Of a DNA stretch of 19,263 nucleotides, positions 166 to 18,328 are shown in pieces. The first letter of the stretch is position 1, and each line of letters starts with the position of its first letter. The notes under the pieces are model-generated. The model had not been told where the DNA came from, searched no databases, and worked only from the letters and a program-made list of their open reading frames with translations. Source of the DNA: Eubacterium sp. (GTDB lineage Bacteria > Bacillota_A > Clostridia > Lachnospirales > Lachnospiraceae); assembly GCA_024687845.1 (NCBI GenBank), contig JAILEL010000457.1, positions 1 through 19,263 of the forward strand. The letters run 5' to 3'. Both the position numbers and the translations under genes were made by a program.

Positions 166-3100
166 ATGAATGCTGAAATGTATAGTCGCGAAGAATTATA
201 TGAACTTCTAAAATCTGATATTTCTGAATCTGAGCAGTTTGAGATATTTATAGCTTTAGCATTAATACATAAAGATTTTAATGAAAATGAAATAAGGCGA
301 TTAATAGAGGAACTGCTGATAGATGAAACAATAAATGCAGAGGCTTTGTCCTCTGCGTTTTTTGCATGCATTAGACTTGGTAACTCCCATCAATATCAGC
401 ATATTTTTTCGGATAATAAAAATATCTCAGTTCATGAAATTCTTGATCCTATTCTATACTCTGACAATTACACTATATACGACCTTATAGATATTGCAGC
501 AGGTGCTCTTATTATATATGGTTCGGGAGAGACATGTCTTAAATTCTTGGACTCGTGGTTTGAATATATGAACCACTTATATAGTAGTTACCATTATCCA
601 CCTTTTATGCTTGCAAAAAATACCCGTTTTCAAACTACAGACATAAAAACCCTTGATTTACAAACTACAAAGAATCAAAATGTAGATTCTAAGCCTATCC
701 AGATATTCACTCTTTTCATGCTTCGTGAATGGTCAGTAGCTGAAGATATTGGCAGAGTAGGTAAATATATAGAAACTCTGGATATGAATTTTATCAAGCA
801 GTTTATTCCGGAGAATCCAGGTTTCTTCTTTGAATGCTTTGTTTCCATTGGAAATATTATAAACTTGGAAAAGTCGATTGACTGCAATAAAATCGCAGTT
901 GAAATCATGAATCAGTATTTTGTTAAGAATGAGGACGAATTAATCATCCTTTATAATATCGCCAACACCTATTACATAATGGGCAAATACTTAGAGACAA
1001 ATGACTATCTCGACCGAATAATAACTAAAGGAGAGAATAGTCCTGAAGAATGTGCATATGTTCTTTCATTGGCATATTCGCTTAAGGCTGAAAATGTCAC
1101 TGTAATTAAGGCGGATAATTCTGAATATGCAGTTGATCTTCTAATAAAATCTCGTGACTATCTTGACTTAATTAAAAGTGATGATGCATATAATGTTGCT
1201 TATATTTCCCTCTGTAAAGTGGCATCTAAGGTATATCTTGACATGGGAGATATTAAGAGAGGTGAAAGCTTTGCAAATGATCTTTGTAGAGCTTATGAAG
1301 AGGGATTTGCGGGTATTGACGATTATCTTGTAGGTCTTAACAATCTTGCTATAGCTTTTCGAAAGCAGGGATTGAAACCTAAAAGTAGAGAGACTTTGGA
1401 AAAAGCTATTCGTTTAGTTGAAGAGAATAATCTTCAGAATACGAATGTTGGGATAATTATTTATAACACTAAAAAAGCACTTTTTACTGAAAATAAAACA
1501 TCGCTAATACAAGAGGCATATGATACGCTCCGAAATTGTAGTAGTGTAAATGGAGTAAATTTTTATACTGTAGTAAATGCTGTAAGTATTACAGTTTCTT
1601 ATGAAAAAAGAAAGTATAGGGTTGAATCATTACTTATAAATGCAATCAAATGCCTTGAAGAATATATTTCGGTGGTTGAAGATAAAAATCTAATTGCTCA
1701 GTATTACATCACGAGATCACTCATTGAAGGGTATTTGTGTAACTTTTATTTATCTGCGGAATTTGTGAAAAAAGCAATTAGTGTTGAACGTGAATCAGAC
1801 TACAGTGTAGATGTTGTAATGATTAATCTTGGATTACATGGCGATATATATATGCATGTATTTAATTCTGCCGAGTTTAAGGCGGTTCTTATGGATGTTA
1901 TAAGAGGCTTTCCACATCGTGCATGGGAAATGCTCAAGCTTTCTGACGAAATGTCACTGTTCAAAGGGCTTTCGCGTCTTAGTGAATATTACAAATTTGT
2001 TCTTTCTGAGCATTATCTGCGTAGAATTCATCTGACTGATGAAGAATTTGTAGAAATATCAGTTAATTGTAAAAATATATATTCAGATATTCTTGGAGTC
2101 AGGGGTGAAGTTGAAAATATGAATCCCTGGTACGAAGAAGAATATGAAGAAGTTAACAAGTTGCATAGAACAATAATCAATCTTCAGCTTGGAAAGTTTT
2201 TTAATCATGAAGAAAGTGAAGCTAGAATAGAAAGCCTGAAAGATGAGAGACATGAAAAAGAGCTTCAATTAATGGAAGATCAGCCTTATAAGAGGTTACA
2301 TTGGATGAATATAGATGAGATAGCCAGTCATCTTCCAGACAATGTAATCTATATAGATTATATTGTTATGCCTCCCGTTGAGGTAAACAGAGATGCTTAT
2401 ATCAAGGATCTGGTATATAACAGATTTGTTCTAGTAAAGGCAAATGGTCAGTTGAGGATAAAAATACTTCCATATCAGAATCTTCTAAAAATAAGATATC
2501 AATTCGAGATTCTCGAAAAGCTTCTTAGAGAAAAATATGGTAAGGAAAGTATTTATTCTCTTGGAAGAATACTAAGAGGTGATAATGCAGTTCTGATTAA
2601 TCTCTATAGAACTTTGTTCAAAGAGGCAATTGATTTTGCAAGGAAGCTTAATATTGTACCAAAGACAATTATTATTTCAGGTGATGCTGAACTAAGTAGT
2701 TTTCCATATGATGCATTAATTGATGAACAAGGAAAATATCTGGTAGAAAAATATGAGATAGTAACTGTTAATTCCCTAAGAAACTATAAAGGAGAGGTCA
2801 AGCTTGAAGAGGGAGATACGGAAAATGCAGTCGTTATAGGTAATCCTTCATTTACTATGGATCTTTCAGTAACTCAGAACTCTGACGATGATAAATATCT
2901 GGTTCAGATACCGCTAAGTAAGATTGAAGCACAGGCTGTTGCAGATACAATCGGTGTAAGACCTTTGCTTAGATCTGATGCAAAGAAGAGTGTGCTTATA
3001 GATAATGACTGCAGAATTCTTCATATAGCAACTCACGGAGATCATCTTGAAGCTGATTATGCAAATGAAATGACAGGGGACTGGATAGAAGGAAATGTAA

Positions 3101-3630
3101 CGAATCCACTCCTGACAAATTGTATATTTATGAGTGGTGCAAATGACTGGATAGTTAAGAATGAAATTGATGAACGGTATGGAAATGGGATTATTACTGC
3201 AGAGGAGTTTAGTACTTACAAACTTCCAAAACTAAAGGTTGTTACGATGTCTGCTTGTTTTACTGGAAGTGGGGACATTAATTATCAATTGGGACTAATA
3301 GGTATGAGAACGGCTCTGATGGCTACCGGAGCAAGAGCGATTATTACGAACCTTTGGGAAGTTGATGATTTTGCTTCGGCAGTATTTATGACAAGATTTT
3401 ATAATAATCTTAAAACAATGACTGTTTCAGCTGCTCTTCGTGAGGCAAAACTATATCTTATGTCAGTTACACTAAAAGATCTTACCATTGACGGATGGTT
3501 TGGTGAAAGTAGAATCAGAAGACTGGGACTGGTTGCTGAAGATATGAGAAAACTATCAGAAAAACCTCCAGGAACAAAACTTTTTGAAAAGCCATTTTAT
3601 TGGGGTGGTTTTACACTTCTTAATCAGTGA
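166..3630 (+). CDS. TPR-CHAT caspase-like cysteine protease
   Basis: Predicted 1154-aa soluble protein: a long all-helical, TPR-like N-terminal part and a C-terminal CHAT (caspase HetF associated with TPRs) peptidase domain. TPR-type helix pairs are visible at about residues 259-292 and 390-423. The CHAT domain covers about 850-1150. Its presumed dyad is His957 in the motif HIATHG and Cys1031 in SACFTGSG, followed by the family-typical stretch GMRTALMATGARAIITNLW. CHAT proteins are clan CD proteases, relatives of caspases and separase, and serve as effectors in several bacterial immunity systems such as Craspase and gasdermin operons. The substrate here is unknown. No signal peptide or membrane segment is seen. 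Start choice is uncertain: AGAAGG at 158-163 leaves only 2 nt to the ATG at 166 and 14 nt to the in-frame ATG at 178, so the first residue could be M1 or M5. The gene has its own terminator and heads the cassette, suggesting separate expression from the downstream genes. Confidence 0.9.
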   Translation: MNAEMYSREELYELLKSDISESEQFEIFIALALIHKDFNENEIRRLIEELLIDETINAEALSSAFFACIRLGNSHQYQHIFSDNKNISVHEILDPILYSDNYTIYDLIDIAAGALIIYGSGETCLKFLDSWFEYMNHLYSSYHYPPFMLAKNTRFQTTDIKTLDLQTTKNQNVDSKPIQIFTLFMLREWSVAEDIGRVGKYIETLDMNFIKQFIPENPGFFFECFVSIGNIINLEKSIDCNKIAVEIMNQYFVKNEDELIILYNIANTYYIMGKYLETNDYLDRIITKGENSPEECAYVLSLAYSLKAENVTVIKADNSEYAVDLLIKSRDYLDLIKSDDAYNVAYISLCKVASKVYLDMGDIKRGESFANDLCRAYEEGFAGIDDYLVGLNNLAIAFRKQGLKPKSRETLEKAIRLVEENNLQNTNVGIIIYNTKKALFTENKTSLIQEAYDTLRNCSSVNGVNFYTVVNAVSITVSYEKRKYRVESLLINAIKCLEEYISVVEDKNLIAQYYITRSLIEGYLCNFYLSAEFVKKAISVERESDYSVDVVMINLGLHGDIYMHVFNSAEFKAVLMDVIRGFPHRAWEMLKLSDEMSLFKGLSRLSEYYKFVLSEHYLRRIHLTDEEFVEISVNCKNIYSDILGVRGEVENMNPWYEEEYEEVNKLHRTIINLQLGKFFNHEESEARIESLKDERHEKELQLMEDQPYKRLHWMNIDEIASHLPDNVIYIDYIVMPPVEVNRDAYIKDLVYNRFVLVKANGQLRIKILPYQNLLKIRYQFEILEKLLREKYGKESIYSLGRILRGDNAVLINLYRTLFKEAIDFARKLNIVPKTIIISGDAELSSFPYDALIDEQGKYLVEKYEIVTVNSLRNYKGEVKLEEGDTENAVVIGNPSFTMDLSVTQNSDDDKYLVQIPLSKIEAQAVADTIGVRPLLRSDAKKSVLIDNDCRILHIATHGDHLEADYANEMTGDWIEGNVTNPLLTNCIFMSGANDWIVKNEIDERYGNGIITAEEFSTYKLPKLKVVTMSACFTGSGDINYQLGLIGMRTALMATGARAIITNLWEVDDFASAVFMTRFYNNLKTMTVSAALREAKLYLMSVTLKDLTIDGWFGESRIRRLGLVAEDMRKLSEKPPGTKLFEKPFYWGGFTLLNQ

Positions 3631-3714
3631 TATTTTTATCAAATAACCAATATTTATGTCAAAATTATGGTGAATTTCGCTATATTTTCGATATTTTAAT
3701 GATTCTAAGAACAT

Positions 3715-3761
3715 ATAGTTAGTGAAAAGCAAAAACTATGCCTTTCACTAGCTATTTTTTT
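3715..3761 (+). terminator. Intrinsic terminator after the CHAT gene
   Basis: A 13-bp stem (3715-3727 with 3743-3755, one G-T wobble) and a 15-nt loop are followed directly by a run of seven T (3755-3761). This is a standard Rho-independent terminator. It separates the CHAT gene from the next gene, whose ribosome binding site begins only about 33 nt further on. Either the downstream operon is fed by read-through, or its promoter lies upstream of or inside the hairpin, which would then act as an attenuator. Confidence 0.85.
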
Positions 3762-3793
3762 AGTGCGTAAAATTATTTATTTCGATTATTTTT

Positions 3794-3799
3794 GGGAGG
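3794..3799 (+). promoter_or_regulatory. Ribosome binding site fixing the start of gene 2
   Basis: GGGAGG lies 7 nt before the ATG at 3807. A longer in-frame reading from the TTG at 3792 would consume this site and has no Shine-Dalgarno of its own, so ATG 3807 is preferred. Confidence 0.85.
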
Positions 3800-3806
3800 T
3801 AAAACC

Positions 3807-4361
3807 ATGGATAATGTTGCAATTTTGGATAGAGACAATTATGTAGCTAACGATTATAGGCATATTTATGAAAGGATAAATCTGTTAGCTGATTATAGGC
3901 CAAAGAATAGTAAAAAGGATATCATTCTCGGCTTAATTGTAGATTTAATAACTAAAGAACTCGGTCTAAGGAAAGACAAATTAACTCTAAAGAATCACAG
4001 TATTGAATTTCGACTACAGATTCCACAGTCTGAACTGGTTATTTTGATTACTCACACTGATGTTGACAATATGATTTCCATTGTAGCAATTATTCCGAGT
4101 ATTTATAACGAGGAATATACAAGGGATTTGGCTGATCAGATTACCCAATGTAATTCTTCTTCCAAAATAGTGCCTTTGGGAAGGATTCTAATGAAGAGAA
4201 CGATAGGGCTTATATGTATGGAGAATCAATTTATATGCAAATCAGAAGAGGATTTTAGTCAAGAGGAGTTCATGACTTATTTTTCTGCAACTGTTGTATC
4301 AGCTGGGCGACTATATCCCAGAATTAGTGAGTATTTATTGAAAGAAGGAGAACCCCAATGA
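3807..4361 (+). CDS. Small YbjN/CesT-chaperone-like protein
   Basis: Predicted 184-aa soluble acidic protein starting MDNVAILDRD. The predicted order is helix, several beta strands (IEFRLQIPQ, LVILITHTD, MISIVAIIP), helix, strands (GRILMKR, GLICMENQFIC), then a long C-terminal helix. This resembles the YbjN/type III secretion chaperone-like fold, including an acidic residue run (SEEDFSQEEF) before the last helix. Such proteins often bind a partner rather than catalyse a reaction, so an adaptor or chaperone role for the Lon-like protein or the CHAT protease is a reasonable inference. The family call rests on pattern and predicted topology, not on a diagnostic motif. Its last codon overlaps the next start as ATGA, implying translational coupling to the Lon-like gene. 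ATG 3807 was chosen over TTG 3792 because of the GGGAGG at 3794-3799. Confidence 0.7.
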   Translation: MDNVAILDRDNYVANDYRHIYERINLLADYRPKNSKKDIILGLIVDLITKELGLRKDKLTLKNHSIEFRLQIPQSELVILITHTDVDNMISIVAIIPSIYNEEYTRDLADQITQCNSSSKIVPLGRILMKRTIGLICMENQFICKSEEDFSQEEFMTYFSATVVSAGRLYPRISEYLLKEGEPQ

Positions 4362-7300
4362 AAGTTAAATTTGAAGATGATATGAAATTTGAAGGTGGTA
4401 GTAATATTGGAAAGCTTGCTGACTTCATCGATACCTATAAAGATGGGGTTACATTGCTTCCTGGTTATATGGAAGCGGCTAATAGTGAATGGTATATGAA
4501 GAAGGTTATGATTATTTCAATTGAAAATGACAATCATAAGTCCAAGGAATACTTTAAGGTTTATGGACTTATAAAGGATGAGCTGGAGACAGATTCTGAT
4601 GATAATAACAAGAAGTCAGATACTGATGCAGCTGAAAAGCGTCATGATAAGGTTAAGGGCTGGAGTGGATACACGGATTACGAAATTGTTGACAGAATCT
4701 CAAAAATCAGTACCGATAATCCGGTTTATATCATTTATGCTTATATCAAAGCTACTAGAAAGAACTATCTTGTGGAATTTCTCACTGAAGAAGAGTTTGA
4801 AAGATACTCCAAAAATATTGTATATGAATCTCAGGATGAATTCTATCAGAAGCTTATCATGTTTCTTAATCTTAGCGATAAGAATAAGAGATATGTCAGA
4901 ATGAGATATGGACTTGAACCTCTTACTGTAAGAGATGGGCTGTTTCATGCTGAGAATTCTGATATCGATTCTGAAGAGTCAGAAATTGTATTGAAATTTT
5001 GCGATGGCCTTATTCCAGAATATGTTAAGAAGGCTATGAAGCAGGATAGCAAGCTATCCAAAAACCATAAGCTTCCGGATGCTGTCAAGAATTCAGTGGG
5101 AATCAGGCAGATGTATTTTCCACGTGTACCTTTTGGACTTCCGTTTAAGCCTAACATTTTGGAAGAAGGCATGGAATATCTAGATCAGCATATTTATGGA
5201 TATACAAACGAGAAGAAAGCTGTTCTTCAGTATATAGATTCTAATAGAAGACGTTTCCATGGAAAATCTATGGCAGAAATCTACAAGATGGAAAAAACCA
5301 GACCTTCAGTGATTGTTATTCTTGGAAGAAATGGAAGTGGTAAGCATCTGTGGGCGAGCAAACTTCCTGAAGCCATTAGTTATACACATGCTGAGTTTGA
5401 TGTCAGTTCGGCGTCTCATGACATAGATGCTTTTCTGGGTTCAAGTCCTATTTATTCGAATTCAATTAATGGTTCTATATCTGAGATTATTACAAAGACC
5501 GGAGATAATGGATGTCTCTCCCTTATAGGATTTGGAACAGCAAAGCCAATCATGAAGAATTCCATAACAAAGTTGGTGACTCAGGGTATTCTCAGAGACA
5601 ACAGTCTGAGTTTTGATATGGATCTTTCAAGAATGACCTTTATTGTTACAGCTGAAAAGAAGGAAGATGTTCCTTCTGAGATTCTGAATATTGCACATGT
5701 AATAACTCTCGGTAAGATGTCTGATGAAGAACGTCTTGTTATCGGGCGTGATTATATGTTTCCACGGGTTTGTGAGAAGCTTTTAGTAGATGGTTCGCTT
5801 ATTCGTATCACAGATGGGGCATATAATAAGATCTGTAATATGTACAGAGTTACTTCATCTCTTGATCAGATTTACATTAACCTTCAGACTGTTGTTCATA
5901 GTGTATCAGAGGACTATGCCGAAGCGCTTTCAAATGGTGAGAATGTTGAGGTAACAGAGGACTATGTAAGAGAAGTTCTTTTCCAGTCCAGCTATGATGA
6001 CTACGTCTATGACATTAGTCAGCTGACAGAAAAGTTTAAGTTCTATAGAGAACGTTTTACTAAGGATACTCAGGATAAGATAGAGGAGCTTTTCGAGGAA
6101 CATGAGGTTGTAGAAGATAAGCGAGCGAAGACGACACTTGAAGAAAAGATCAGATTCTATGTCAATTATGTTCCTTCTGAGTCAGAGATTAAGATTTCTG
6201 TAGAGGATATTTTATTAAACTATAAGAATCTTATGAATGAGAAAGAATATGGACATGATGAAGCTAAGAACATGATCATTGATTCCATGATTGAAAACAT
6301 ACTCGCAGGAAAGAATCTCTTCGGTTCTCTTAATATCCTCCTATATGGAGCTCCTGGTACAGGTAAAACTATGCTGGGTCACATGGTAGCAGATATCCTG
6401 AATGTTCCGTTTATTAAGATAAGTCTCAATGGAATGAAGGATCCGTCTATACTAAAGGGGCACTCTGAGGGATATTCTGGAGCTACATTAGGAAAGCTTA
6501 GTGAAGAGTTAAGAAAAAATGGTCCGACAGCGGTTCTGCTTTTCGACGAGTTAGAAAAGGCTTCGCTTGAAGTAATTAATACATTATACGATATCCTGGA
6601 TCCTTCAGAACACGGATACTATGATTGTTATCTTGGAGACTTTGTTGATACTTCTCAACTTATTACTATTGCTACATGTAACGATATTAGTAACATTCCG
6701 ACAGCTTTGAGAGACCGTTTCAAGTGTATTAGTATCGATGGATATACTGTAGAAGAGAGAAAGATTATTGCGCGTGATTACGTTATTCCTAAGTTTCTTG
6801 AGGAGTTTTCGCTGACTAAGAAGGTGATCTTTAAGCAGGAAGCTATTGATACATTAATTGAAGACTATATCCACTCATCAAGTGTCAGAGAGATTGAGAA
6901 ATGCATAAAGAAGCTTCTCGTCAGAACGTATAGTGGAACAGTTATCAGTGGTAAGAAGCGTGGGAAGCTGACTATTACAAGTAAGATTGTTCGAGAAATT
7001 CTTGGTGCCAGACCTATTAAGTCAGGAAATATTCCTGAGGGCGACTATACTCCGGGAATTATGAATTGCCTTGCAGTGCATAATGATGGCAGCGGATGTG
7101 TATTTCCTGTAGAGGTTGAGCTTTCACCATATATTGACGAAAGTTATGTTACCGGTTCCTGTAAGGAAATGATTCAGGATTCCATTAAGATGGCGAAGGT
7201 TGTTGTGTCCAACATGTTGGGAAGAAAGCTGGATAATGTTGCAATTACCATGTCCGAGCAGGCTGTGCCTAAGGATGGTCCGTCAGCAGGACTCTCAATA

Positions 7301-7591
7301 GCCATATGTATGTTATCTGCACACCTTGGAATCAGTGTACCAAAGACTATTGCAAGTACAGGTGAGATTGATCTCAAAGGTGGTGTATATGCTATAGGAG
7401 GCCTTAAGGGCAAGCTTGATGCAGCGCGTCAGGAAAATATTACCAGAGTATATATTCCTAAGCAGAATTATGACTATATGCAGGAAAATGGTGAACTTGC
7501 TTCTTATACTGATTTAGATATAGTACCGGTAAGCAATATCCGGGAGGTAGCTGAAGAATTATTTGGGGAGGCTCTGAAAAATGAAAAATGA
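4358..7591 (+). CDS. Lon-like AAA+ protease with duplicated ATPase module
   Basis: Predicted 1077 aa, longer than typical Lon (about 780-800 aa). Residues 1 to about 260 form a non-Lon N-terminal region with a charged linker near 75-105. A first Lon-type AAA module (about 265-500) begins with LDQHIYGYTNEKKAVLQYI but is degenerate: its Walker A is GRNGSGKH (323-330, His in place of Ser/Thr), the Walker B acids are missing (LSLIGFG), and no arginine finger is visible. A second module (about 615-880) is intact: Walker A GAPGTGKT (664-671), Walker B with D730-E731, and ALRDRF as arginine finger. The C-terminal Lon protease domain keeps PKDGPSAG with Ser976 and GGLKGK with Lys1019, 43 residues apart as in E. 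coli Lon (S679/K722), so it is predicted to be an active Ser-Lys peptidase. The start has AAGGAG 7 nt upstream and overlaps gene 2 by 4 nt. Proteolysis of a system component or an invader protein is inferred; the target is unknown. Confidence 0.92.
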   Translation: MKVKFEDDMKFEGGSNIGKLADFIDTYKDGVTLLPGYMEAANSEWYMKKVMIISIENDNHKSKEYFKVYGLIKDELETDSDDNNKKSDTDAAEKRHDKVKGWSGYTDYEIVDRISKISTDNPVYIIYAYIKATRKNYLVEFLTEEEFERYSKNIVYESQDEFYQKLIMFLNLSDKNKRYVRMRYGLEPLTVRDGLFHAENSDIDSEESEIVLKFCDGLIPEYVKKAMKQDSKLSKNHKLPDAVKNSVGIRQMYFPRVPFGLPFKPNILEEGMEYLDQHIYGYTNEKKAVLQYIDSNRRRFHGKSMAEIYKMEKTRPSVIVILGRNGSGKHLWASKLPEAISYTHAEFDVSSASHDIDAFLGSSPIYSNSINGSISEIITKTGDNGCLSLIGFGTAKPIMKNSITKLVTQGILRDNSLSFDMDLSRMTFIVTAEKKEDVPSEILNIAHVITLGKMSDEERLVIGRDYMFPRVCEKLLVDGSLIRITDGAYNKICNMYRVTSSLDQIYINLQTVVHSVSEDYAEALSNGENVEVTEDYVREVLFQSSYDDYVYDISQLTEKFKFYRERFTKDTQDKIEELFEEHEVVEDKRAKTTLEEKIRFYVNYVPSESEIKISVEDILLNYKNLMNEKEYGHDEAKNMIIDSMIENILAGKNLFGSLNILLYGAPGTGKTMLGHMVADILNVPFIKISLNGMKDPSILKGHSEGYSGATLGKLSEELRKNGPTAVLLFDELEKASLEVINTLYDILDPSEHGYYDCYLGDFVDTSQLITIATCNDISNIPTALRDRFKCISIDGYTVEERKIIARDYVIPKFLEEFSLTKKVIFKQEAIDTLIEDYIHSSSVREIEKCIKKLLVRTYSGTVISGKKRGKLTITSKIVREILGARPIKSGNIPEGDYTPGIMNCLAVHNDGSGCVFPVEVELSPYIDESYVTGSCKEMIQDSIKMAKVVVSNMLGRKLDNVAITMSEQAVPKDGPSAGLSIAICMLSAHLGISVPKTIASTGEIDLKGGVYAIGGLKGKLDAARQENITRVYIPKQNYDYMQENGELASYTDLDIVPVSNIREVAEELFGEALKNEK

Positions 7592-9488
7592 TTATGATTT
7601 AGACAAGGTTGAAATGCTCAATAACCGAGTGACTGGTGAAAGAGACCTGGTATATGGTAACAAAGTGATTGCAAAAAATGTATATCCGCCAATTATGAAA
7701 AGACAGAATAGTGGAATCGTTTATGGCAGATATCAGGTTCCTTTTGCGACCCTCGATGAAAACGAATTATATCCGGTACATTTCTTTGTTTACTCTGTAA
7801 ATACAGATAAAACATATAGTTACAGAAAGGACAGGCTTTTCATCTCAGAAGTATATGATTATCCTCTTTGTCAGGAGGATAATCATATAAAGAGATTCGC
7901 AATAAAGGATGGCATCGCGATGTGGGAGACAATCTATGACATTGATAACAGTCAAAATGTTGTGAAGGGTGGTTCAGATCTTTGGCAGATTGAAACTAAG
8001 TTAAGTGAGGCGGATTTCCAGATACCTTTATGTATTACTGAAGACTATGAGGTTCAGGAATCAACTGGAAATGAACTTAGTAAAGTATTGTGGAAACAGA
8101 TTTATTATCACTTAGGAGATAAAATATTTAATACTAGGAAGATTGATAGAGCTGATTTCCCTATGATTAATACATTGGAAAATGTGAAGGCTGTTATTGA
8201 GGCAATAATAGATGCAAAACTTAGAATTGACATAGAGCTTTCTTCGTCAGATGAAGACGAGGATGAGGATTCAGATATTGCTAAAGCCAAGAATGAATAC
8301 AGGAGACGGGATATCGAAGAACTTATTAAAGCGCTAGACAGAAGAATCGCAGAACTTGAAAATGGTGAAGAAGGAGAGACTGAGAAAAAAAGCCTTGAAG
8401 CCGTATCCAGGATAAATAAAAATTATAAGCTTTACAGATTCTGTAGAAACGAAAAACTGGATGGTTTTAAGGACTTACTTCATATATGTGAAGAACAGCT
8501 GGGAATTAAAGATGAAGACGATATTACATATCTTCTTCTAAGAATTATCCGGGCACTCAGGGGTATCTACTCTACAGAAGAAAATCATTTCACTTATGAG
8601 CGGTTCAATAAACTGTTTGAAAAAACAATTAGTGAAAAAACGAAGAACAGAAAGATGGCGCGACGTGCAATGAAGGAGATATTTATTAATCCAGTATCTA
8701 AAGATTACCCTTTGGACGTTGAATGCTTACAAGCTTTTTATCCTAAGCTGGAAAAGGCTGCTGATTATTGTTCAAAGAGAATTATAACTAATAGTGGTCT
8801 TGATGTTCCAGAAAGTAATGGTAATAGAATCGGTTGGATAGAATACTGTGAGTCAGAGAATGAGATAGGTGTCTTCTATGAGGAAAGCATTCCTTATGGT
8901 GATTTAAGGTTTTCCGAGGAGATTCATCCAAGCGTAGGCAAAGAGCAATCTGTAAAGATTAATGACCCGGATTTCAGATATGCTGAAATATATTATAGCC
9001 TGAGTGACAGAATGCTTCATGTTATTAATAATGAAAAAATACCGTTACAAAGTCTTATGAAGGGTATGTGCATTTTCGAAGAATCAGACGTCAGTTATAT
9101 CATAGATGATGATTATATTGATCATACATATAGTAAACCTCTTTTAGATGATAAAGATAGATTTAGATGTACTCTTGATAACTATGAAAGATATCTGCCA
9201 CAGTATTTGGGAATACGATATGGAGGGTTGGTTATTCTGGATGATGATTCAATCTCTGTCATGAGATTACAAATTAAGGATCTCAAAGCGTACATCCTGG
9301 CTAATGATCATATGAAGCTTGCAAGAGAAATGGAAAGTGGGGAGGTTTTCTGGGTAAGAAAAACACCTCATGGTGATATATGTACCATTGTATCAGATAG
9401 ATTTGACAGAAAGGTTATTTCGGCTATAGATGAGCTGTTTGGACTTAATGGAAAATGGAAATGGAGACGTTATTTAAGTGGGGAGTGA
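7581..9488 (+). CDS. Unrecognised 635-aa cassette protein
   Basis: I do not recognise a family. The predicted soluble acidic protein has a mixed alpha/beta N-terminal half rich in aromatic residues (about 1-150), a low-complexity acidic tract SSSDEDEDEDSD at 221-232, and a charged coiled-coil-like segment just after it (RRRDIEELIKALDRRIAELE, about 240-265). A helical middle and a beta-rich C-terminal part (about 430-635) follow. No Walker motif, HExxH, nuclease motif or transmembrane segment is visible. The start ATG sits 9 nt after GGGGAGG (7565-7571) inside the end of the Lon-like gene and overlaps it by 11 nt, so the two are probably translationally coupled and may act together. The gene ends 7 nt before the helicase start. 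A scaffold or recognition subunit is possible but unproven. Confidence 0.85.
   Translation: MKNDYDLDKVEMLNNRVTGERDLVYGNKVIAKNVYPPIMKRQNSGIVYGRYQVPFATLDENELYPVHFFVYSVNTDKTYSYRKDRLFISEVYDYPLCQEDNHIKRFAIKDGIAMWETIYDIDNSQNVVKGGSDLWQIETKLSEADFQIPLCITEDYEVQESTGNELSKVLWKQIYYHLGDKIFNTRKIDRADFPMINTLENVKAVIEAIIDAKLRIDIELSSSDEDEDEDSDIAKAKNEYRRRDIEELIKALDRRIAELENGEEGETEKKSLEAVSRINKNYKLYRFCRNEKLDGFKDLLHICEEQLGIKDEDDITYLLLRIIRALRGIYSTEENHFTYERFNKLFEKTISEKTKNRKMARRAMKEIFINPVSKDYPLDVECLQAFYPKLEKAADYCSKRIITNSGLDVPESNGNRIGWIEYCESENEIGVFYEESIPYGDLRFSEEIHPSVGKEQSVKINDPDFRYAEIYYSLSDRMLHVINNEKIPLQSLMKGMCIFEESDVSYIIDDDYIDHTYSKPLLDDKDRFRCTLDNYERYLPQYLGIRYGGLVILDDDSISVMRLQIKDLKAYILANDHMKLAREMESGEVFWVRKTPHGDICTIVSDRFDRKVISAIDELFGLNGKWKWRRYLSGE
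9480..9485 (+). promoter_or_regulatory. Ribosome binding site deciding the helicase start
   Basis: GGGGAG lies 10 nt before the ATG at 9496 and 7 nt before an in-frame TTG at 9493. The longest reading from GTG 9478 overlaps this site and has no Shine-Dalgarno of its own, so the start is taken as 9496. Confidence 0.7.
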
Positions 9489-9495
9489 TTTATTG

Positions 9496-12400: not shown

Positions 12401-12771
12401 TCAATGAGAATATTAAGTCATGGAAAGAGCAGATATTTCAGGACTATATGGGTTTTGACGTAATACTTCCTGAAGATATGACTCTGGATGACAGATATGT
12501 AATTCTCCGGAGAAGAAATGGTGGTTCCTATAAGGTTGCCATGAATGACAGAACTCCTCTTGGCGTTACGCAGGCTTTAGATGCTACGCTGCTTGGTCTT
12601 TCAAAAAGAGTTTTGAAACTGAAGAGGTTAGTAACTGATTATGAGAATGAACTTGAAGAATCTCTAAATGAGATTGCAAAGGGTAACATATATGATGATG
12701 AGGTTGAAGAACTTGAGGCAAAGCTGGCCCAGCTAGACCGGGAACTTACTGAGTCATTAGAAAAGAAGTAG
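9496..12771 (+). CDS. Stand-alone SNF2/DEAH-type helicase-like ATPase
   Basis: Predicted 1091-aa superfamily 2 ATPase. Residues 1 to about 290 form an N-terminal region that includes a possible helix-turn-helix-like stretch (KLAGVSEQAIVDYYIGK) and a charged helix. The helicase core follows: a Q-like motif region (FYQHQKDGVARAIL), Walker A HDVGSGKT (328-335), the DEAH box (488-491) in FIDEAHNYKN, TGTLLTNS as motif III, SKLGVGVNVQ as motif V and QREGRLIRQG (812-821) as motif VI. A charged C-terminal coiled coil (about 880-1090) ends the protein. The core and the SYAEVKAL-like sequence after it (DYSEVKALALGNSKI) match the helicase half of very large phage and integrative-element proteins that also carry an N12-class adenine methyltransferase. 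No methyltransferase motif is present here. It probably uses ATP to translocate on or remodel duplex DNA. Three in-frame starts exist (GTG 9478, TTG 9493, ATG 9496); the Shine-Dalgarno favours one of the last two. Confidence 0.9.
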   Translation: MRKSTQLLDIPYETEESAGFTEHKAWSYELPFRKCGSYDISEVLSICLYDKKGIVDIYYCAKLAGVSEQAIVDYYIGKAVIQIPGMYAFHRKEYEDYILIVQYLQGNLYDLLNEVEQYNEQFEHRFDINEAVILKHMPEIPSIYDIHTQLGATWISENTIAAFIKDLLHLPIEPKVKTYKNKRRIDCPILPYDIYNREKFGTDRMSALKILDHILNASTIKVKDEVPADNASGKKMVVNKIETQIAEEKKHIILREFDKWCKRNKIIIKSLIRQYCDMYAYTIPKYDGSFLKFSDMNPEVTFYQHQKDGVARAILSDTGTGSNVVYCHDVGSGKTYIIVATAHELKRLGLSEKNMIVVPNNVFGDAVRTHKYLYPQDKLLTISPEDFTPKNREEIIHKIKTEDYTAIYICYSKFDMLSLSYSYYLESMQEEQRELNDDYRNIKDRWARKVISGKLDNIKKKKEKLEKEYTEDVRCCFDELGITSLFIDEAHNYKNCSIDTRLEGVIGMHRKGSNKADLLLDKVRCVQKKKGNVFFYTGTLLTNSIADLFVFQDYLQHDTLRNCSIATFGEWASTFCSIINSFEIDVDSTNFRYTTRLSSYHNLPELMSVAGGVCDFYHNSPDDMPLPIFNGYKDIVVEQTKYHEEYNKIIVDRVDEIRTGNVPPDEDNILMLITDGRKISLDARHIYSEAVIQENECKAGACAKEAAKIYKEHPGTTQIIFCDYSTPKDGFNVYDEVKKYLIKNGVKAKEIAFIQEGTTENKKQKLLKHLNDGEIRVMLGSTSKLGVGVNVQENLIAIHHLDAPWRPSDISQREGRLIRQGNKNEEVFIFRYLTSGSFDAYVWQLLENKRKFIGDFLKGSLSEFHRDESEIDTVMLDYSEVKALALGNSKIRNRIQTFNKLERAKISKKYRYKQLGEMSEKVKSLKSQIKKTNYKIHVVTADKEYYNEKKEKVTREERIAFGEDLIEALNENIKSWKEQIFQDYMGFDVILPEDMTLDDRYVILRRRNGGSYKVAMNDRTPLGVTQALDATLLGLSKRVLKLKRLVTDYENELEESLNEIAKGNIYDDEVEELEAKLAQLDRELTESLEKK

Positions 12772-12810
12772 TATATCATTAATTCAGATAATCAATAGAA
12801 AGGAGCCCCA

Positions 12811-13956
12811 ATGGCAATACTTAATCTTCCGGAGATTTCCACCGGTGAAGTTGTAAAAATTAATTCTGATTACATTATAAAAATGCTTAGATCCGGAGTA
12901 GAATGCAAGGACATCCGTGCCAGCATCTTCTTCGGACCTACAGGTGTAGGAAAGTCTGCTGCAATCTACCAGATTGCAGAAAGGCTGAGAAAGGAACTCA
13001 AAAGACCTGTAGAAGTGGTTGACATAAGATTAACAACCTGCAGCATTACAGATCTTATTGGTATTCCTGTTCCAAATGCGGATAGAACCGAAACGACATG
13101 GCTCCGGCCGGAGATATTTAAGATAAATAAATCAGAGGACGATGATACCCTGTTTCTATACTTCTTTGATGAGCTGGATAAGGCAAGCCCTTCTGTGCAG
13201 GCCGCAGCCTTGCAGCTTGTGCTGGACCGCACCGCCTTCTCTCATAATTTTTCAAAGAATACGATTATTTTCGCAGCTGCAAATCCAGCGAGAACATCCA
13301 GTGCGAAAAAAGCAGATGGTATGGGGCCAAAGGAAACCAAAATGACTCCGGAACTTCTCAACCGCTTCCGTCAGTTTTTGGTTAAACCTGATATGGATTC
13401 CTTTAGAGAGTGGGCCATAGCGAATAAGCTTCATCCACTGGTTTTAGGATATCTATCCTTTGACAACAGCAAGCTCTATGCTGCTTCGGAGATGGAGACG
13501 ACTGCATTTCCAACTCCAAGAAGCTGGAAGAGTGTGAGTGATCTGCTGAAGGCATATGACGGCCCTGATGATATGGATATCAGTGATCTGCATTATGACA
13601 TTGCAGGTGACCTGGGAAAGGGTGTCGCACTGGAATTCGAAAGCTGGTGTTCTGTTTCAGAATTCCTTCCTGATATCAGATATATTTTCACAGGACAGGA
13701 GACAAAACTCCCTCGTACACCGGATGTATTGCATGCAGTTATTGCATCCATGACAACCTATATAGAAGATCATATTAAGCGTATGCCTGTATCCGAAATG
13801 AGAAATGCCTGTAAGTTTGTAAACCGCTTTCCAGTGGATTTCGCAGCACTTTTCTATCGAAATATAAGGGATATTGAAGGCGTAAATCTTCGACTTATGA
13901 AAGTCACAGAATATAGTGAATGGTGTAGAAAGCATTCTGAAATAGCAGGAAGATAG
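12811..13956 (+). CDS. MoxR-family AAA+ ATPase
   Basis: Predicted 381-aa cytoplasmic AAA+ ATPase. Walker A is GPTGVGKS (42-49), Walker B ends in FFDELDKA with D120-E121, sensor 1 is in IIFAAANPA, and ELLNRFRQF supplies the arginine-finger region. Layout and length fit the MoxR group. MoxR proteins are chaperone-like ATPases that typically pair with a vWA-domain partner encoded next door, and exactly such a gene follows 10 nt downstream, so a MoxR-vWA complex is the likely unit. The start ATG follows AAGGAG (12800-12805) by 5 nt. The gap after the helicase is 39 nt with no terminator visible, so it is probably in the same operon. This gene looks richer in G and C (codons GCC, CTG, CCG) than its neighbours, by eye only. 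Confidence 0.93.
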   Translation: MAILNLPEISTGEVVKINSDYIIKMLRSGVECKDIRASIFFGPTGVGKSAAIYQIAERLRKELKRPVEVVDIRLTTCSITDLIGIPVPNADRTETTWLRPEIFKINKSEDDDTLFLYFFDELDKASPSVQAAALQLVLDRTAFSHNFSKNTIIFAAANPARTSSAKKADGMGPKETKMTPELLNRFRQFLVKPDMDSFREWAIANKLHPLVLGYLSFDNSKLYAASEMETTAFPTPRSWKSVSDLLKAYDGPDDMDISDLHYDIAGDLGKGVALEFESWCSVSEFLPDIRYIFTGQETKLPRTPDVLHAVIASMTTYIEDHIKRMPVSEMRNACKFVNRFPVDFAALFYRNIRDIEGVNLRLMKVTEYSEWCRKHSEIAGR

Positions 13957-13960
13957 GTGA
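13955..13960 (+). promoter_or_regulatory. Ribosome binding site before the vWA-metallopeptidase gene
   Basis: AGGTGA, the 3' part of the ideal Shine-Dalgarno, lies 6 nt before ATG 13967 but directly against the alternative ATG 13961. This favours 13967. An upstream AGGAAG at 13947-13952 could instead serve ATG 13961 at 8 nt, so the choice is not settled. Confidence 0.55.
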
Positions 13961-13966
13961 ATGACT

Positions 13967-15223
13967 ATGGATGATAACGATAAAAGAAATATATCCTTAA
14001 GACTTTCGCATGCACGAGCCGTACTTTTGAAGAAATATCCATTTTTCGGAAATATGGTTATGAATCTTTCCTTCGGCCTTGACGATAGCTGTGGTACTGC
14101 GTATACAGATATGCAGCACATCATTTTTGATCCACAGTTTGCTAACAGACTGTCAGATGAAGAACTTGAATTTGTATTGATGCATGAGGTTATGCACTGT
14201 GTACTTAATCATTGTGTTAGAGGCAGAGGAAAGATCTCAATGATATACAATATCGCCTGCGATATCGTTGTGAATTCGAATATTCTCGATTATATGAATA
14301 ATACTGAATTTGTTGATAGAGACTTCCGGAATATTGATGACCAGAAGCTGATGGAAGAACTTAGGAGTCGTGAATTTAAGGTGGATGGAGAACCTGTAAT
14401 GCATCTTACTCCCTCTAAAAAAGAGGGGAGACTTTTCACTGCGGAGGAGATATATGATGAACTAATATCCAGCAAAAATCTTCAGGGGCTGGAGGAGACA
14501 TATAAAAACCTTGATTCACATGATATCTGGAATGAGATAGAAATCAATGAACAGGATGCAGATAAATGGGACAAGATACTTAAGGACTATGGCTCAAAGT
14601 CCGGGAATTCTTTTTCTATTATTCCACAGAGTGTAAGAAAGATTTTTGAGGATGCTGAGAAACAGGCAAGCATCAAATGGAAGGATTATCTTAGAGAATT
14701 TGTGAGTTCTTATATTGATGTAACAGATTATTCTTTTTCGCCTCCGGATAGGAGGTTCAGTGGAAATAGTGAATATCCATTTCTGCTGCCGGGAGAGAAT
14801 TCATTTTCCATGGTAAATCGACCACAGGGAATATGGTTTGCTGTGGATACATCTGGCTCTATATCTCAGAAAGAGCTCACAAGACTCTGTGGCGAGGTTA
14901 TGCATGTGATTGAGGAGTGTCCGGGAGCGAGCGGATATATATCATTCTTTGATACTTCGATTACAGAACCTGTTCCATTTTCAGAAAAGGAAGATATTGA
15001 ATATTTAGATCCTAAAGGTGGTGGTGGCACTTCCTTCTCGCCAATCTTTAGATACATGAAAGAGAATATGATGCCAGACCTGCCTAAAGCTATAGTCATA
15101 ATGACTGATGGGTATGCACCGGATGTTCCTATGGAAAGGGCATTAGGCGTACCAGTTCTTTGGGTGCTGATTAACAATCCTGAGGATAAAACCTGGGGAG
15201 AAAACATACATATAAATACATGA
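13967..15223 (+). CDS. vWA-domain metallopeptidase-like protein (DUF2201 type)
   Basis: Predicted 418 aa with two domains. The N-terminal half is metallopeptidase-like: HEVMH (73-77) is an HExxH zinc motif, followed by CVLNH with a further His82, as in the putative metallopeptidase domain of the DUF2201 family. The C-terminal half is a von Willebrand A fold with a complete MIDAS metal site: DTSGS (294-298), Thr355 in GGGGTSF and Asp381 in MTDG. Proteins of this architecture are commonly encoded next to a MoxR ATPase, as here. The pair is thought to work as an ATP-driven chaperone or regulatory unit; whether the zinc site cleaves peptides is not established. No signal peptide or membrane anchor is seen. 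An alternative start 6 nt upstream (13961) would add two residues. Confidence 0.92.
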   Translation: MDDNDKRNISLRLSHARAVLLKKYPFFGNMVMNLSFGLDDSCGTAYTDMQHIIFDPQFANRLSDEELEFVLMHEVMHCVLNHCVRGRGKISMIYNIACDIVVNSNILDYMNNTEFVDRDFRNIDDQKLMEELRSREFKVDGEPVMHLTPSKKEGRLFTAEEIYDELISSKNLQGLEETYKNLDSHDIWNEIEINEQDADKWDKILKDYGSKSGNSFSIIPQSVRKIFEDAEKQASIKWKDYLREFVSSYIDVTDYSFSPPDRRFSGNSEYPFLLPGENSFSMVNRPQGIWFAVDTSGSISQKELTRLCGEVMHVIEECPGASGYISFFDTSITEPVPFSEKEDIEYLDPKGGGGTSFSPIFRYMKENMMPDLPKAIVIMTDGYAPDVPMERALGVPVLWVLINNPEDKTWGENIHINT

Positions 15224-15261
15224 AAAAAACATTGACGAGCTAAAAAGAAAGAGGGTGTGAC

Positions 15262-16941
15262 ATGAACAGAAGGAAATGCAAAGAGTATGAAAATATAAAA
15301 AACCTAGGCGATATCTTCCGTTATGCATATGAGCATGATTTTTATTACTATTCATTAAGTAACGACGATGAAGATCCATATGGCGTATATTTGACTGATG
15401 AGAGTGAAGGATCGGATGCACTTAGAACGGTATATATGTGTATGCTTGAAAAAGGTCTGATTGCTACTGGAAAGGAACGTTATGATTTTGAATATGCACT
15501 GAGGTGGTTTAGTTCTGATGAAACTCTTTATAGAGCTGAACTTGTTCTTCCATTTCTGAAGCTTACCCTCTTTAAAAATCTAGGGCTTATAGATATAGAT
15601 CCAGATTTGTATTCGGATTTTTTTGACGAATATGAACAGGAAAATCCAGATGATTTTGATCCATTTGATAATAATCTGAGTAACTCTTACGCTGCTTATA
15701 TCGATACTGTAAATATAGATCCTATAGTAGATTATCTTAATTCGTTTACAGTAAATGAAGTGATAAAAGAAAATGCGAGTGATATATTCTATACATTAAA
15801 TAATTATGGAAATATAAGTGGTCATTCACTAATATATTATAGTGATGAAAGTGGTAAACTAGTGCCAGAATCACATAGATTTGATCATGTTTTTAAACTT
15901 GATCTTTATGCAACTGAAAAACAAAGCATTATAGAATTAGATTCAGATATAGAATATCAATTTGGCCATACTGATGGTGGAAGCTGGGTAATGTATGGTA
16001 AAAAAGCAAAAACTTTGGATCATGAAGATACTGAAGAGAATGAATCTGAGAATATATGTAGAAATATAAAACTGATTTCTTTAAATGCTGAAACAGGAGA
16101 TAAGATTGAATATAAGGGTGTGGTCGTAGCGTATAATAATCAGGATAAGGTTATTATTCAGCGTGGAAATATTCTCTATAAGGTGGAAGGAAACTGCATA
16201 GAAGAAATACGAAATCTTGGAAAGAGGGAATATGTTAAATGGGATAATGATGAATACTTGAAAATATCGGCTTATAGTAAGTTAAAAGAGGAATTAGTTA
16301 TTCATCCGATTCTTCGAGGAGCATTTGTACCTTTCCGTATCTCGTATGAAGGAGAATATATAGGAATGGACACGTCAGCAAGTCAGTATATATGGTGGTC
16401 TATTTTATCCATGGATTATTTCAATGCTAAAAGTCAGGATCTGCCATATGAAATATTCTGTCATGGATTAAATGAGAGATACGAATCAGATAAAAAATTC
16501 AAAAAATTTATGTTGGATAAGTGCTCCATAAATGAGATTATGTCATTTGAAAATAAAATGTATAAAAGAAATAAAAAGCTGATAAAAAGTATGAAGCCTA
16601 TATTTTTACTAGTTACTGCACTTTCATATGCAGTAGATAAAGATGCTGATATAAGTAGTCTTCTTTGCAATATTAGAAAAGATTTCTTAAATAGCCAGAA
16701 ATCTTACTGGGATGACATTATAGATATGAAGTACGAACATGCAGATAAGGAAGATGAAGATATAGTGGAAAAAGACCTACTTGGACAGAGGTTTTGTAAG
16801 GACTTTGTTATAAGTTATAGATATAACAGCTTCGTTTCACAGGAATATGTAGAGGATGTTATTGTAAGGTATGGAACACATCATATGAAGGATTATGTTA
16901 AAAAACTTTGGTTTAAAGACTCACCTTCATTAATAAATTAA
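15262..16941 (+). CDS. Unrecognised 559-aa protein closing the cassette
   Basis: I do not recognise a family. The predicted soluble, acidic protein is rich in Asp, Glu, Tyr and Asn. The N-terminal part (about 1-160) is helical and contains an Asp/Glu-dense stretch around DEYEQENPDDFDPFDNN. The middle (about 195-345) looks beta-rich, with short strand-like segments such as VFKLDLYAT, GVVVAYNN, KVIIQRGNILYKV, perhaps a small propeller or sandwich, interrupted by the acidic loop HEDTEENESEN. The C-terminal part (about 400-559) is helical and basic, with a run KMYKRNKKLIKSMKP. No catalytic motif is visible. The start follows GAGG (15251-15254) by 7 nt, 38 nt after the vWA gene. Its codon use is more ATA/AAT-rich than the MoxR gene, resembling the CHAT gene, so it may be a variable or later-added component such as a target-recognition or toxin-like part; that is inference. 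Confidence 0.82.
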   Translation: MNRRKCKEYENIKNLGDIFRYAYEHDFYYYSLSNDDEDPYGVYLTDESEGSDALRTVYMCMLEKGLIATGKERYDFEYALRWFSSDETLYRAELVLPFLKLTLFKNLGLIDIDPDLYSDFFDEYEQENPDDFDPFDNNLSNSYAAYIDTVNIDPIVDYLNSFTVNEVIKENASDIFYTLNNYGNISGHSLIYYSDESGKLVPESHRFDHVFKLDLYATEKQSIIELDSDIEYQFGHTDGGSWVMYGKKAKTLDHEDTEENESENICRNIKLISLNAETGDKIEYKGVVVAYNNQDKVIIQRGNILYKVEGNCIEEIRNLGKREYVKWDNDEYLKISAYSKLKEELVIHPILRGAFVPFRISYEGEYIGMDTSASQYIWWSILSMDYFNAKSQDLPYEIFCHGLNERYESDKKFKKFMLDKCSINEIMSFENKMYKRNKKLIKSMKPIFLLVTALSYAVDKDADISSLLCNIRKDFLNSQKSYWDDIIDMKYEHADKEDEDIVEKDLLGQRFCKDFVISYRYNSFVSQEYVEDVIVRYGTHHMKDYVKKLWFKDSPSLIN

Positions 16942-17166: not shown

Positions 17167-17200
17167 AAAAAGAGTGTCGCTTGCGACACTCTTTTTGTTT
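17167..17200. terminator. Strong intrinsic terminator with CTTG loop
   Basis: A perfect inverted repeat, 17167-17180 with 17183-17196, contains the core GAGTGTCG, the stable tetraloop CTTG and CGACACTC. The A-run on one side and T-run on the other make it able to work in both directions. It is the first convincing terminator after the eight-gene cassette and shields the following LicA-like operon. Confidence 0.9.
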
Positions 17201-17325: not shown

Positions 17326-17355
17326 TTGACACAAGTGCATATATACGTCTATACT
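17326..17355 (+). promoter_or_regulatory. Sigma-A promoter for the LicA-like/BCCT operon
   Basis: A perfect -35 box TTGACA (17326-17331) and a -10 box TATACT (17350-17355) are separated by 18 bp. Transcription would start near 17362, giving a leader of about 50 nt before the ATG at 17413. Confidence 0.8.
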
Positions 17356-18318: not shown

Positions 18319-18328
18319 AGGAGAAAAA

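What the first reader, a model, noticed from the sequence alone, without database searches (positions are those of the whole stretch)
166..16941. Eight-gene cassette combining CHAT, Lon, SNF2 helicase and MoxR-vWA modules, not matching a system I know
The sequence directly shows a TPR-CHAT protease, a YbjN-like small protein, a double-AAA Lon protease, an SNF2/DEAH helicase, a MoxR ATPase, a vWA metallopeptidase-like protein and two unknown large proteins, all on one strand with overlaps or gaps mostly below 40 nt. CHAT proteases, helicases and MoxR-vWA pairs each occur in known bacterial conflict systems, including ternary systems built around vWA and MoxR with protease effectors. I know of none with this full set. 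There is no nuclease, methyltransferase, PglZ, BrxC or CRISPR component. A defence or programmed-death role, with the CHAT protein as effector and the ATPases as sensors or gates, is inferred.
Basis: partly seen in the sequence, partly recalled or inferred. Interest (0 to 1): 0.88.

Follow-up and report, generated by a model that had tools for sequence, protein, structure and literature searches.

The report
Helicase–MoxR–vWA core with two proteases
An unnamed bacterium carries eight neighbouring genes in which a conserved three-gene set (a helicase, an ATPase and a metallopeptidase partner) sits beside two proteases, one of them caspase-like; the layout resembles predicted bacterial immune or self-destruct systems, but with a Lon-type protease where such systems have been described with FtsH.

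Summary
They are not shown to be one conserved cassette. Genes 5-7 (SNF2-type helicase, MoxR-type ATPase, metallopeptidase-vWA) recur in the same order in at least 7 of 299 genomes of a Lachnospiraceae family draw, give broadly congruent trees, and have varying partners (TerY-P-like genes plus restriction helicase, GmrSD, HerA, WYL, FHA). Genes 1-4 were found with them nowhere else: gene 4 matched 0 of 299 genomes. Gene 8 recurs in the nearest relative, away from the core.
Gene 3 is a tandem-AAA+ Lon. Its first ring aligns along Lon but lacks the Walker B acidic pair and arginine finger; its second ring and Ser-Lys dyad are intact. This parallels the published FtsH-type MoxR-vWA ternary conflict systems (inactive plus active AAA+ copy, caspase-like effector), with Lon in place of FtsH. 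Gene 8 is tentatively beta-propeller-like.
Best reading: a new variant of MoxR-vWA conflict systems, ATPases gating proteolysis and CHAT as executioner. Defence is inferred; gene 1 is probably transcribed separately, behind a terminator-like hairpin, so its membership rests on adjacency.

The parts
166..3630 (+). g1: TPR-CHAT protease (1154 aa), CHAT domain at about 2599-3621, His957/Cys1031; candidate effector, own transcription unit likely
   Evidence: Pfam CHAT 9.2e-46, TPR models below cut-off; motifs; 0 of 200 family genomes at 1e-12
3705..3762 (+). terminator-like hairpin followed by a T run between g1 and g2
   Evidence: listed by the scan on the - strand at 3750-3720; window 3700-3775 of the + strand folds at -22.2 kcal/mol
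3807..4361 (+). g2: small protein, 184 aa from ATG 3807 with GGGAGG upstream (TTG 3792 possible); no known family
   Evidence: model pLDDT 37.6, no fold assignable
4358..7591 (+). g3: tandem-AAA+ Lon-type protease (1077 aa): degenerate AAA+ ring 1, active-looking ring 2, Lon proteolytic domain with Ser976/Lys1017
   Evidence: Pfam Lon_C 2e-30, AAA 2.2e-18; residues within 134-541 align with the helical plus AAA+ part of Lon proteins, Walker B acids and Arg finger lost
7581..9488 (+). g4: 635 aa protein of unknown family
   Evidence: no family at cut-off; one 98% relative among the 7994 candidates scored from 5.8 billion proteins; 0 of 299 genomes; no plasmid match
9478..12771 (+). g5: stand-alone SNF2-type helicase related to DarB and conjugative-element helicases, no Pfam methylase domain; first gene of the conserved triad
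   Evidence: phrog_10089 1.9e-173; Helicase_C 1.6e-11; relatives annotated SNF2-related; triad side of a 100/100 branch
12811..13956 (+). g6: MoxR-type AAA+ ATPase; second gene of the triad
   Evidence: Pfam AAA_2 4.2e-7, AAA_5 3.1e-5; AAA_3 in 8 of 9 alignment members; phrog_1297 4.3e-66; alignment A3
13961..15223 (+). g7: metallopeptidase (HEVMH) fused to vWA (MIDAS DTSGS, TDG), DUF2201_N plus DUF2201; third gene of the triad
   Evidence: Pfam 2.6e-27 and 4e-17; phrog_1314 2.4e-75, labelled HNH endonuclease there; alignment A2
15262..16941 (+). g8: 559 aa, tentative beta-propeller-like middle (residues about 181-384, nt 15802-16413) between helical parts
17167..17197 (+). hairpin with T-rich tail closing the gene run before g9
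   Evidence: sequence read, position; seen by eye, not listed by the scan

Best explanation
Shown: genes 5-7 are a linked, apparently co-inherited three-gene set of Lachnospiraceae-family genomes (stand-alone SNF2-type helicase, MoxR-type ATPase, metallopeptidase-vWA) with exchangeable neighbours. In this window it is joined with an operon-like set g2-g3-g4 upstream and g8 downstream, next to a TPR-CHAT protease gene. Shown from sequence: g3 is a Lon with a degenerate first AAA+ ring and an intact second ring and protease dyad. Inferred: the whole works as a MoxR-vWA-gated proteolytic conflict system, laid out like the published FtsH-type ternary systems but built on Lon. Proposed steps, all inferred: the helicase engages invading or abnormal DNA; MoxR with the vWA partner remodels a MIDAS-bound client and sets a threshold; the metallopeptidase and Lon cut or clear a regulator (g2, g4 or g8 being candidate adaptors or sensors); the CHAT protease is then released to cleave host proteins and stop growth or kill the cell.
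For: Triad in the same order in 7 of 299 family genomes (neighbourhoods of 13 of the 28 matching genomes opened). The three proteins give the same three groups in their trees and distance correlations r 0.92, 0.95, 0.84, reached by 34, 8 and 23 of 40,320 permutations. Partners include TerY-P-like genes plus a DUF4011/REase helicase scoring 3e-192 to PADLOC PDC-S37 and a GmrSD_N gene about 30 nt downstream in G283. Catalytic motifs present in CHAT, Lon, helicase, g6 and g7. Degenerate first AAA+ ring, matching the 'inactive plus active AAA+ copy' that section 21 of PMC7159879 gives for FtsH ternary systems, whose complex variant has a typically caspase-like effector. Tight gene layout from g2 to g8. 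Full-length 98-99% copies of g3 and g4 on other ENA contigs.
Against: No other locus opened joins the triad to a CHAT or Lon gene, including the nearest relative G001, where FHA and vWA-like genes hold that place. g1 is set apart by 161 nt with a terminator-like hairpin. The two further genes of this window are choline-kinase-like and BCCT, not defence genes. None of the eight proteins gives a full-length PADLOC match. Some triad loci have ordinary neighbours (aspartokinase in G001 and G130; nothing striking in G113, by eye). Congruent trees could also come from vertical inheritance of whole genomes; no control for that was run. Genes 2 and 4 could not be assigned. No experiment.
Confidence: 0.45

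Rival explanations
1. Composite of independent units: the triad is a self-sufficient DNA-processing or stress module, and CHAT, g2-Lon-g4 and g8 are recent neighbours that share an island but no mechanism.
For: Neighbours of the triad vary between genomes; g1-g4 were seen with it only here; g8 sits elsewhere in G001; hairpin between g1 and g2.
Against: g2 to g8 run with junctions of at most 39 nt, g2/g3 and g3/g4 overlapping, which suggests one transcript; exchangeable partners are also what modular conflict systems show.
Confidence: 0.33
2. Protein and DNA quality-control or stress-response operon: MoxR-vWA and Lon remodel and degrade damaged complexes, CHAT being a maturation protease, without a role against invaders.
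For: Known MoxR-vWA pairs assist complex assembly and metal-cluster insertion (passages of PMC7159879); Lon is a quality-control protease (established knowledge); no defence gene among the two further genes of this window.
Against: Sparse detection (at least 7 of 299), divergence (33-72% identity between loci) and neighbours such as TerY-P-like/REase helicase and GmrSD genes are unlike housekeeping.
Confidence: 0.15
3. Remnant of a mobile element: helicase from a conjugative-element methylase-helicase and MoxR/metallopeptidase-vWA from a phage assembly pair, kept by an integrated element.
For: Outside the triads the helicase is closest to DarB-like and conjugative-element proteins; the MoxR plus metallopeptidase-vWA pair occurs in phages (PMC7824862 passage); serine recombinases (by eye) beside two IMG/VR triads.
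Against: Triad helicases lie on one side of a 100/100 branch (only four outgroups) and lack a Pfam methylase; no structural, relaxase or integrase family among the ten window ORFs scanned.
Confidence: 0.07

Closest known systems
FtsH-type MoxR-vWA ternary conflict systems (Kaur et al. 2020, PMC7159879, section 21 read)
   Same: MoxR-vWA pair; a further AAA+ protein of protease type with two AAA+ copies, the first inactive; caspase-superfamily protease; possibly a propeller
   Different: Lon instead of FtsH; vWA fused to a metallopeptidase, not to a propeller; no Ubl/E1/E2/JAB genes seen; no EAD1 hit; canonical P-loop in g6 (the paper gives GXXXTAKS as common); an added SNF2-type helicase
Phage MoxR plus metallopeptidase-vWA pair (jumbo phages, PMC7824862 passage)
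   Same: Same two-protein pair, vWA with N-terminal metallopeptidase; g6 and g7 match phage families phrog_1297 and phrog_1314
   Different: Helicase gene in front; not on a recognisable phage; the role proposed there is virion assembly
DarB-like and conjugative-element methylase-helicase proteins
   Same: Helicase region aligns over about 1,000 residues at about 30% identity
   Different: Stand-alone helicase without a Pfam methyltransferase or the long polyvalent chain
Type III-E Craspase (TPR-CHAT with gRAMP; abstract listing only)
   Same: TPR-CHAT architecture of g1
   Different: No repeat array and no cas family beyond partial Cas3-helicase and CARF-Lon similarity; no CHAT chain among PDB matches of g1 at E 1
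TerY-P triad systems (Anantharaman 2012, as cited in passages of PMC11090510)
   Same: TerY-P-like genes (PP2C, kinase, vWA) with a restriction-type helicase lie directly upstream of the triad in G176
   Different: No TerY-P genes in this window; the helicase-MoxR-vWA trio is a different set

Membership tests
FtsH-type MoxR-vWA ternary system | AAA+ ATPase of MoxR clade next to a vWA protein | tested here: met
   g6 beside g7; AAA_5 and vWA-like DUF2201 matches; AAA_3 in 8 of 9 members of A3, not in g6 itself
FtsH-type MoxR-vWA ternary system | Third component with two AAA+ copies, first inactive, second active | tested here: met
   by sequence only: g3 ring 1 lacks Walker B acids and Arg finger but keeps a P-loop-like GRNGSGKH (the published first copy has lost it too); ring 2 intact
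FtsH-type MoxR-vWA ternary system | The AAA+ copies are FtsH-type | tested here: not met
   Lon-type: Lon_C 2e-30; TIGR00763 2.8e-87, below its curated cut-off; ring 1 aligns with Lon
FtsH-type MoxR-vWA ternary system | Caspase-superfamily effector fused to EAD1 (complex variant) | tested here: not met
   CHAT present; no EAD family hit in g1 at E 0.1
FtsH-type MoxR-vWA ternary system | Ubl, E1, E2, JAB genes (complex variant) | tested here: inconclusive
   no such family among the ten ORFs scanned, but the contig starts 165 nt before g1 and three proteins are unassigned
FtsH-type MoxR-vWA ternary system | vWA fused to beta-propeller (complex variant) | tested here: not met
   g7 is metallopeptidase-vWA; g8 is a separate, only tentatively propeller-like protein
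Beta-propeller MoxR-vWA ternary system | MoxR of the bpMoxR family | tested here: inconclusive
   no bpMoxR match in g6 at E 0.1; weak matches in 5 of 9 members of A3, best 0.0028
VMAP or iSTAND ternary system | VMAP or iSTAND third component | tested here: inconclusive
   no Pfam family at cut-off in g2, g4 or g8, but these proteins are unassigned
MoxR plus metallopeptidase-vWA pair | vWA with N-terminal HExxH metallopeptidase beside MoxR | tested here: met
   DUF2201_N plus DUF2201, HEVMH; phrog_1314 and phrog_1297
DarB/BcgI-like methylase-helicase | N6-methyltransferase domain with the helicase | tested here: not met
   no methylase family in g5 in Pfam or NCBIfam; PHROG families labelled DNA methyltransferase match the helicase by part of long profiles
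DISARM or BREX | DrmABC, or BrxC/PglZ set | tested here: not met
   within the window only partial DrmD, DrmA, BrxH and BrxL similarity
Canonical Lon | Ser-Lys proteolytic dyad | tested here: met
   Ser976, Lys1017 by motif; region aligns with solved Lon proteases
Canonical Lon | N-terminal LON substrate-binding domain | tested here: not met
   no PF02190 match in g3 at E 0.1, while two Lons of the family show it
Anti-phage defence system | Interference with phage or plasmid | not testable with these tools
   needs an experiment

The most novel reading that the evidence does not exclude
Probability: 0.3. Interest if true: 0.85.

Novelty: new variant of a known kind. Interest (0 to 1): 0.6.

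Why it matters
The MoxR-vWA conflict systems of PMC7159879 are preponderantly from multicellular prokaryotes (abstract) and use VMAP, iSTAND, FtsH or propeller partners. A helicase-led core in Lachnospiraceae, with Lon in the FtsH place, would suggest that the same gate was built around another AAA+ protease, and gives a defined three-gene set to test. It would also give a tandem-ring Lon with a degenerate first ring a functional context.

Tried and rejected
Gene 4 and gene 3 in viral contigs: no confirmed match. Gene 7 alone in viral contigs: none; its alignment A2 gave 33 loci, of which 2 hold the triad and 28 of 33 a MoxR hit. Gene 8 alignment in viral contigs: none. These scans use short exact peptide patterns and miss distant relatives. 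Gene 2 fold: model too poor, Foldseek rows meaningless; its two weak genome hits rejected: G088 lies in a GGDEF protein, G028 has a stop inside and was not opened. Gene 3 N-part matched 252 of 299 genomes at E 0.001; 14 of the 15 longest ORFs at the best hits matched again by phmmer, and of three scanned two are ordinary Lon proteins and one an AAA protein without a Lon domain, so these were taken as generic AAA+ hits, not orthologues. Rejected: DISARM/BREX (partial scores only); Craspase (no repeat array; only partial Cas3 and CARF-Lon similarity); plasmid carriage of the triad (4 of 2044 helicase-bearing plasmid records and 2 of 55 gene-7 records opened; no triad annotated in the shown flanks). 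An empty genome search is weak evidence, as the tool warns: gene 1 (200 genomes, E 1e-12) and gene 4 (299) rang nowhere.

Rows dropped before counts or trees: three helicase fragments (one plasmid piece, one G130 piece, the G001 C-terminal piece) and one partial MoxR; in the family draw 15 of the 28 gene-7 genomes (E 3e-15 to 8e-11) were not opened, so 7 of 299 is a lower bound. G093 was labelled non-triad only because its contig ends upstream of MoxR.
Full report
Observation. The window encodes eight + strand genes between 166 and 16941 followed by a choline-kinase-like gene and a BCCT transporter gene. From gene 2 to gene 8 the junctions are overlaps of 4 or 11 nt or gaps of at most 39 nt (the g4/g5 overlap rests on a GTG start); between gene 1 and gene 2 lie 161 nt with a hairpin and T run, and a hairpin follows gene 8 (17167-17197). 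The next gene has a TTGACA-18-TATACT site at 17326. So g2-g8 look like one transcription unit and g1 like another. These are consensus matches only: the promoter scan as a whole was at shuffle level (78 found, 77.0 expected) and the 12 terminator-like sites little above it (8.3 expected, sd 3.0). The gene 1-2 hairpin was listed on the - strand, and the hairpin after gene 8 was seen by eye.

The proteins. g1 is TPR-CHAT with His957 and Cys1031; g3 a Lon; g5 a helicase with GSGKT, DEAH and QREGRLIR; g6 an AAA+ ATPase; g7 a DUF2201 metallopeptidase-vWA with HEVMH and DTSGS; g2, g4 and g8 reach no family's cut-off in Pfam and match nothing in NCBIfam, PADLOC or PHROGs at E 0.1. The SNF2 label of g5 comes from annotated relatives; Pfam's own SNF2 model was below cut-off. 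The MoxR label of g6 comes from its relatives (AAA_3 in 8 of 9), from the pairing with a vWA protein, and from Midasin as the best PDB match of the profile (E 3.7e-4). In g3, residues within 134-541 align along the helical and AAA+ part of Lon proteins from the family of G001 (two of them scanned: full Lon architecture); the P-loop is GRNGSGKH where three aligned Lons have GPPGTGKT, and the acidic Walker B pair and the arginine of the LLDR motif are missing. The second ring and the Ser976/Lys1017 dyad are present. So 'double-AAA' is right, with the first ring probably dead.

Distribution. A search of 5.8 billion proteins, in which about 8,000 candidates per query are scored, found one relative of g4 (98%), two of g8 besides itself (76% and 33%) and, for g3, one 99% copy followed by distant Lon and Clp-type ATPases. 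One pattern scan of the species genomes with the g8 alignment confirmed one locus, in an uncultured Lachnospiraceae MAG (G001), where g8 stands beside genes of unknown role and a metallophosphatase, with RtcB and TatD genes nearby. G001 also carries g5, g6 and g7 in the same order at 48-60% identity, on two contigs.

The triad. In 299 genomes of the family drawn for G001, 28 matched g7 at 1e-10; I opened the neighbourhoods of 13 of those 28. Helicase-MoxR-vWA stands in that order in 7 (G001, G283, G099, G040, G113, G176, G130); G093 ends just upstream of MoxR; G298 has the pair in reverse order without a helicase hit; the other 4 opened have distant pairs only. In 398 genomes of the phylum, 9 matched the g7 profile at 1e-25 including G001; all 8 others were opened: MoxR hit in 7 of 8, helicase hit in 0 of 8, several contigs being short. 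Trees of the three proteins give the same three groups, (window, G001), (G176, G130), (G283, G099, G040, G113); the G176-G130 pair is below the tool's star in the MoxR and vWA trees (90/76 and 92/93), and the order among the groups is open there. The distance matrices correlate at 0.92, 0.95 and 0.84, values reached by 34, 8 and 23 of 40,320 permutations. That fits co-inheritance, but descent of whole genomes would give the same and was not controlled for. In the g6 and g7 trees G093 falls inside the group.

Partners. Beside the triad lie: a vWA, a kinase and a PP2C gene (TerY-P-like) and a DUF4011 helicase-REase (G176); a GmrSD_N gene about 30 nt downstream, with a WYL gene and a phosphoesterase just below cut-off upstream (G283); WYL (G099) and two phosphoesterase genes (G040); HerA and aspartokinase (G130); an ACT/aspartokinase end, a vWA-like protein below cut-off and an FHA protein (G001); nothing striking by eye in G113. 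g1-g4 gave no tblastn match at 1e-3 in the loci listed. Thus the conserved unit is g5-g7, and the rest is specific to this lineage as far as could be searched.

Comparison with print. PMC7159879 (abstract, outline, sections 21 and 22 and passages seen) defines four MoxR-vWA ternary classes. Its FtsH class has a component with two FtsH-type AAA+ copies, the first inactive, and in its complex variant usually a propeller-vWA, Ubl genes and a typically caspase-like effector fused to EAD1. The window shares the logic (pair, inactive plus active AAA+ copy, caspase-superfamily protease, possible propeller) but fails on FtsH type, EAD1 and vWA-propeller fusion, and shows no Ubl genes, so it is not filed as a member; it may work like one. 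PMC7824862 (passages) describes a phage MoxR with a metallopeptidase-vWA, the same pair type as g6-g7. PMC11090510 (passages) describes TerY-P triads attached to restriction-type systems, which fits G176. PMC8195603, PMC12839542, PMC10910872 and PMC12669027 were seen as passages. No paper with this combination surfaced in the nine searches; most papers of subscription journals are not held.

Mechanism. Shown: gene content, motifs, triad linkage, congruence, degenerate Lon ring. Inferred: DNA sensing by g5, thresholding by g6-g7, Lon-mediated removal or processing of a regulator, CHAT execution. I give the conflict-system reading 0.45 and the composite-of-units reading 0.33. The strongest facts against the first are that no second locus joins the triad with CHAT or Lon and that g1 is set apart by a hairpin.

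Noticed in passing
L090 4216-6902: In an IMG/VR contig a large serine recombinase ORF (by eye) abuts the remaining C-terminal part of the triad helicase, as if an element had inserted into the helicase gene; MoxR and vWA follow.
   Followed up: partly
L091 5293-12087: Triad followed by a DUF2828/DUF7788 protein and two large serine recombinases (by eye).
   Followed up: partly
L037 (G176), upstream of the triad: TerY-P-like genes plus a 1651 aa DUF4011/MTES_1575 helicase-nuclease (PDC-S37 3e-192) directly upstream of the helicase-MoxR-vWA triad.
   Followed up: partly
L001 154-12263 (G001): RtcB, TatD, two metallophosphatases and a 688 aa unknown protein in the region of the g8 homologue; possible RNA-repair island.
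   Followed up: no
L038 (G130): Triad helicase reads as two ORFs, one with a run of N, so it may be broken or badly assembled.
   Followed up: no
window 17413-19261: Choline-kinase-like gene and BCCT transporter gene, a lic1-like pair (name recalled), with its own promoter-like site.
   Followed up: no
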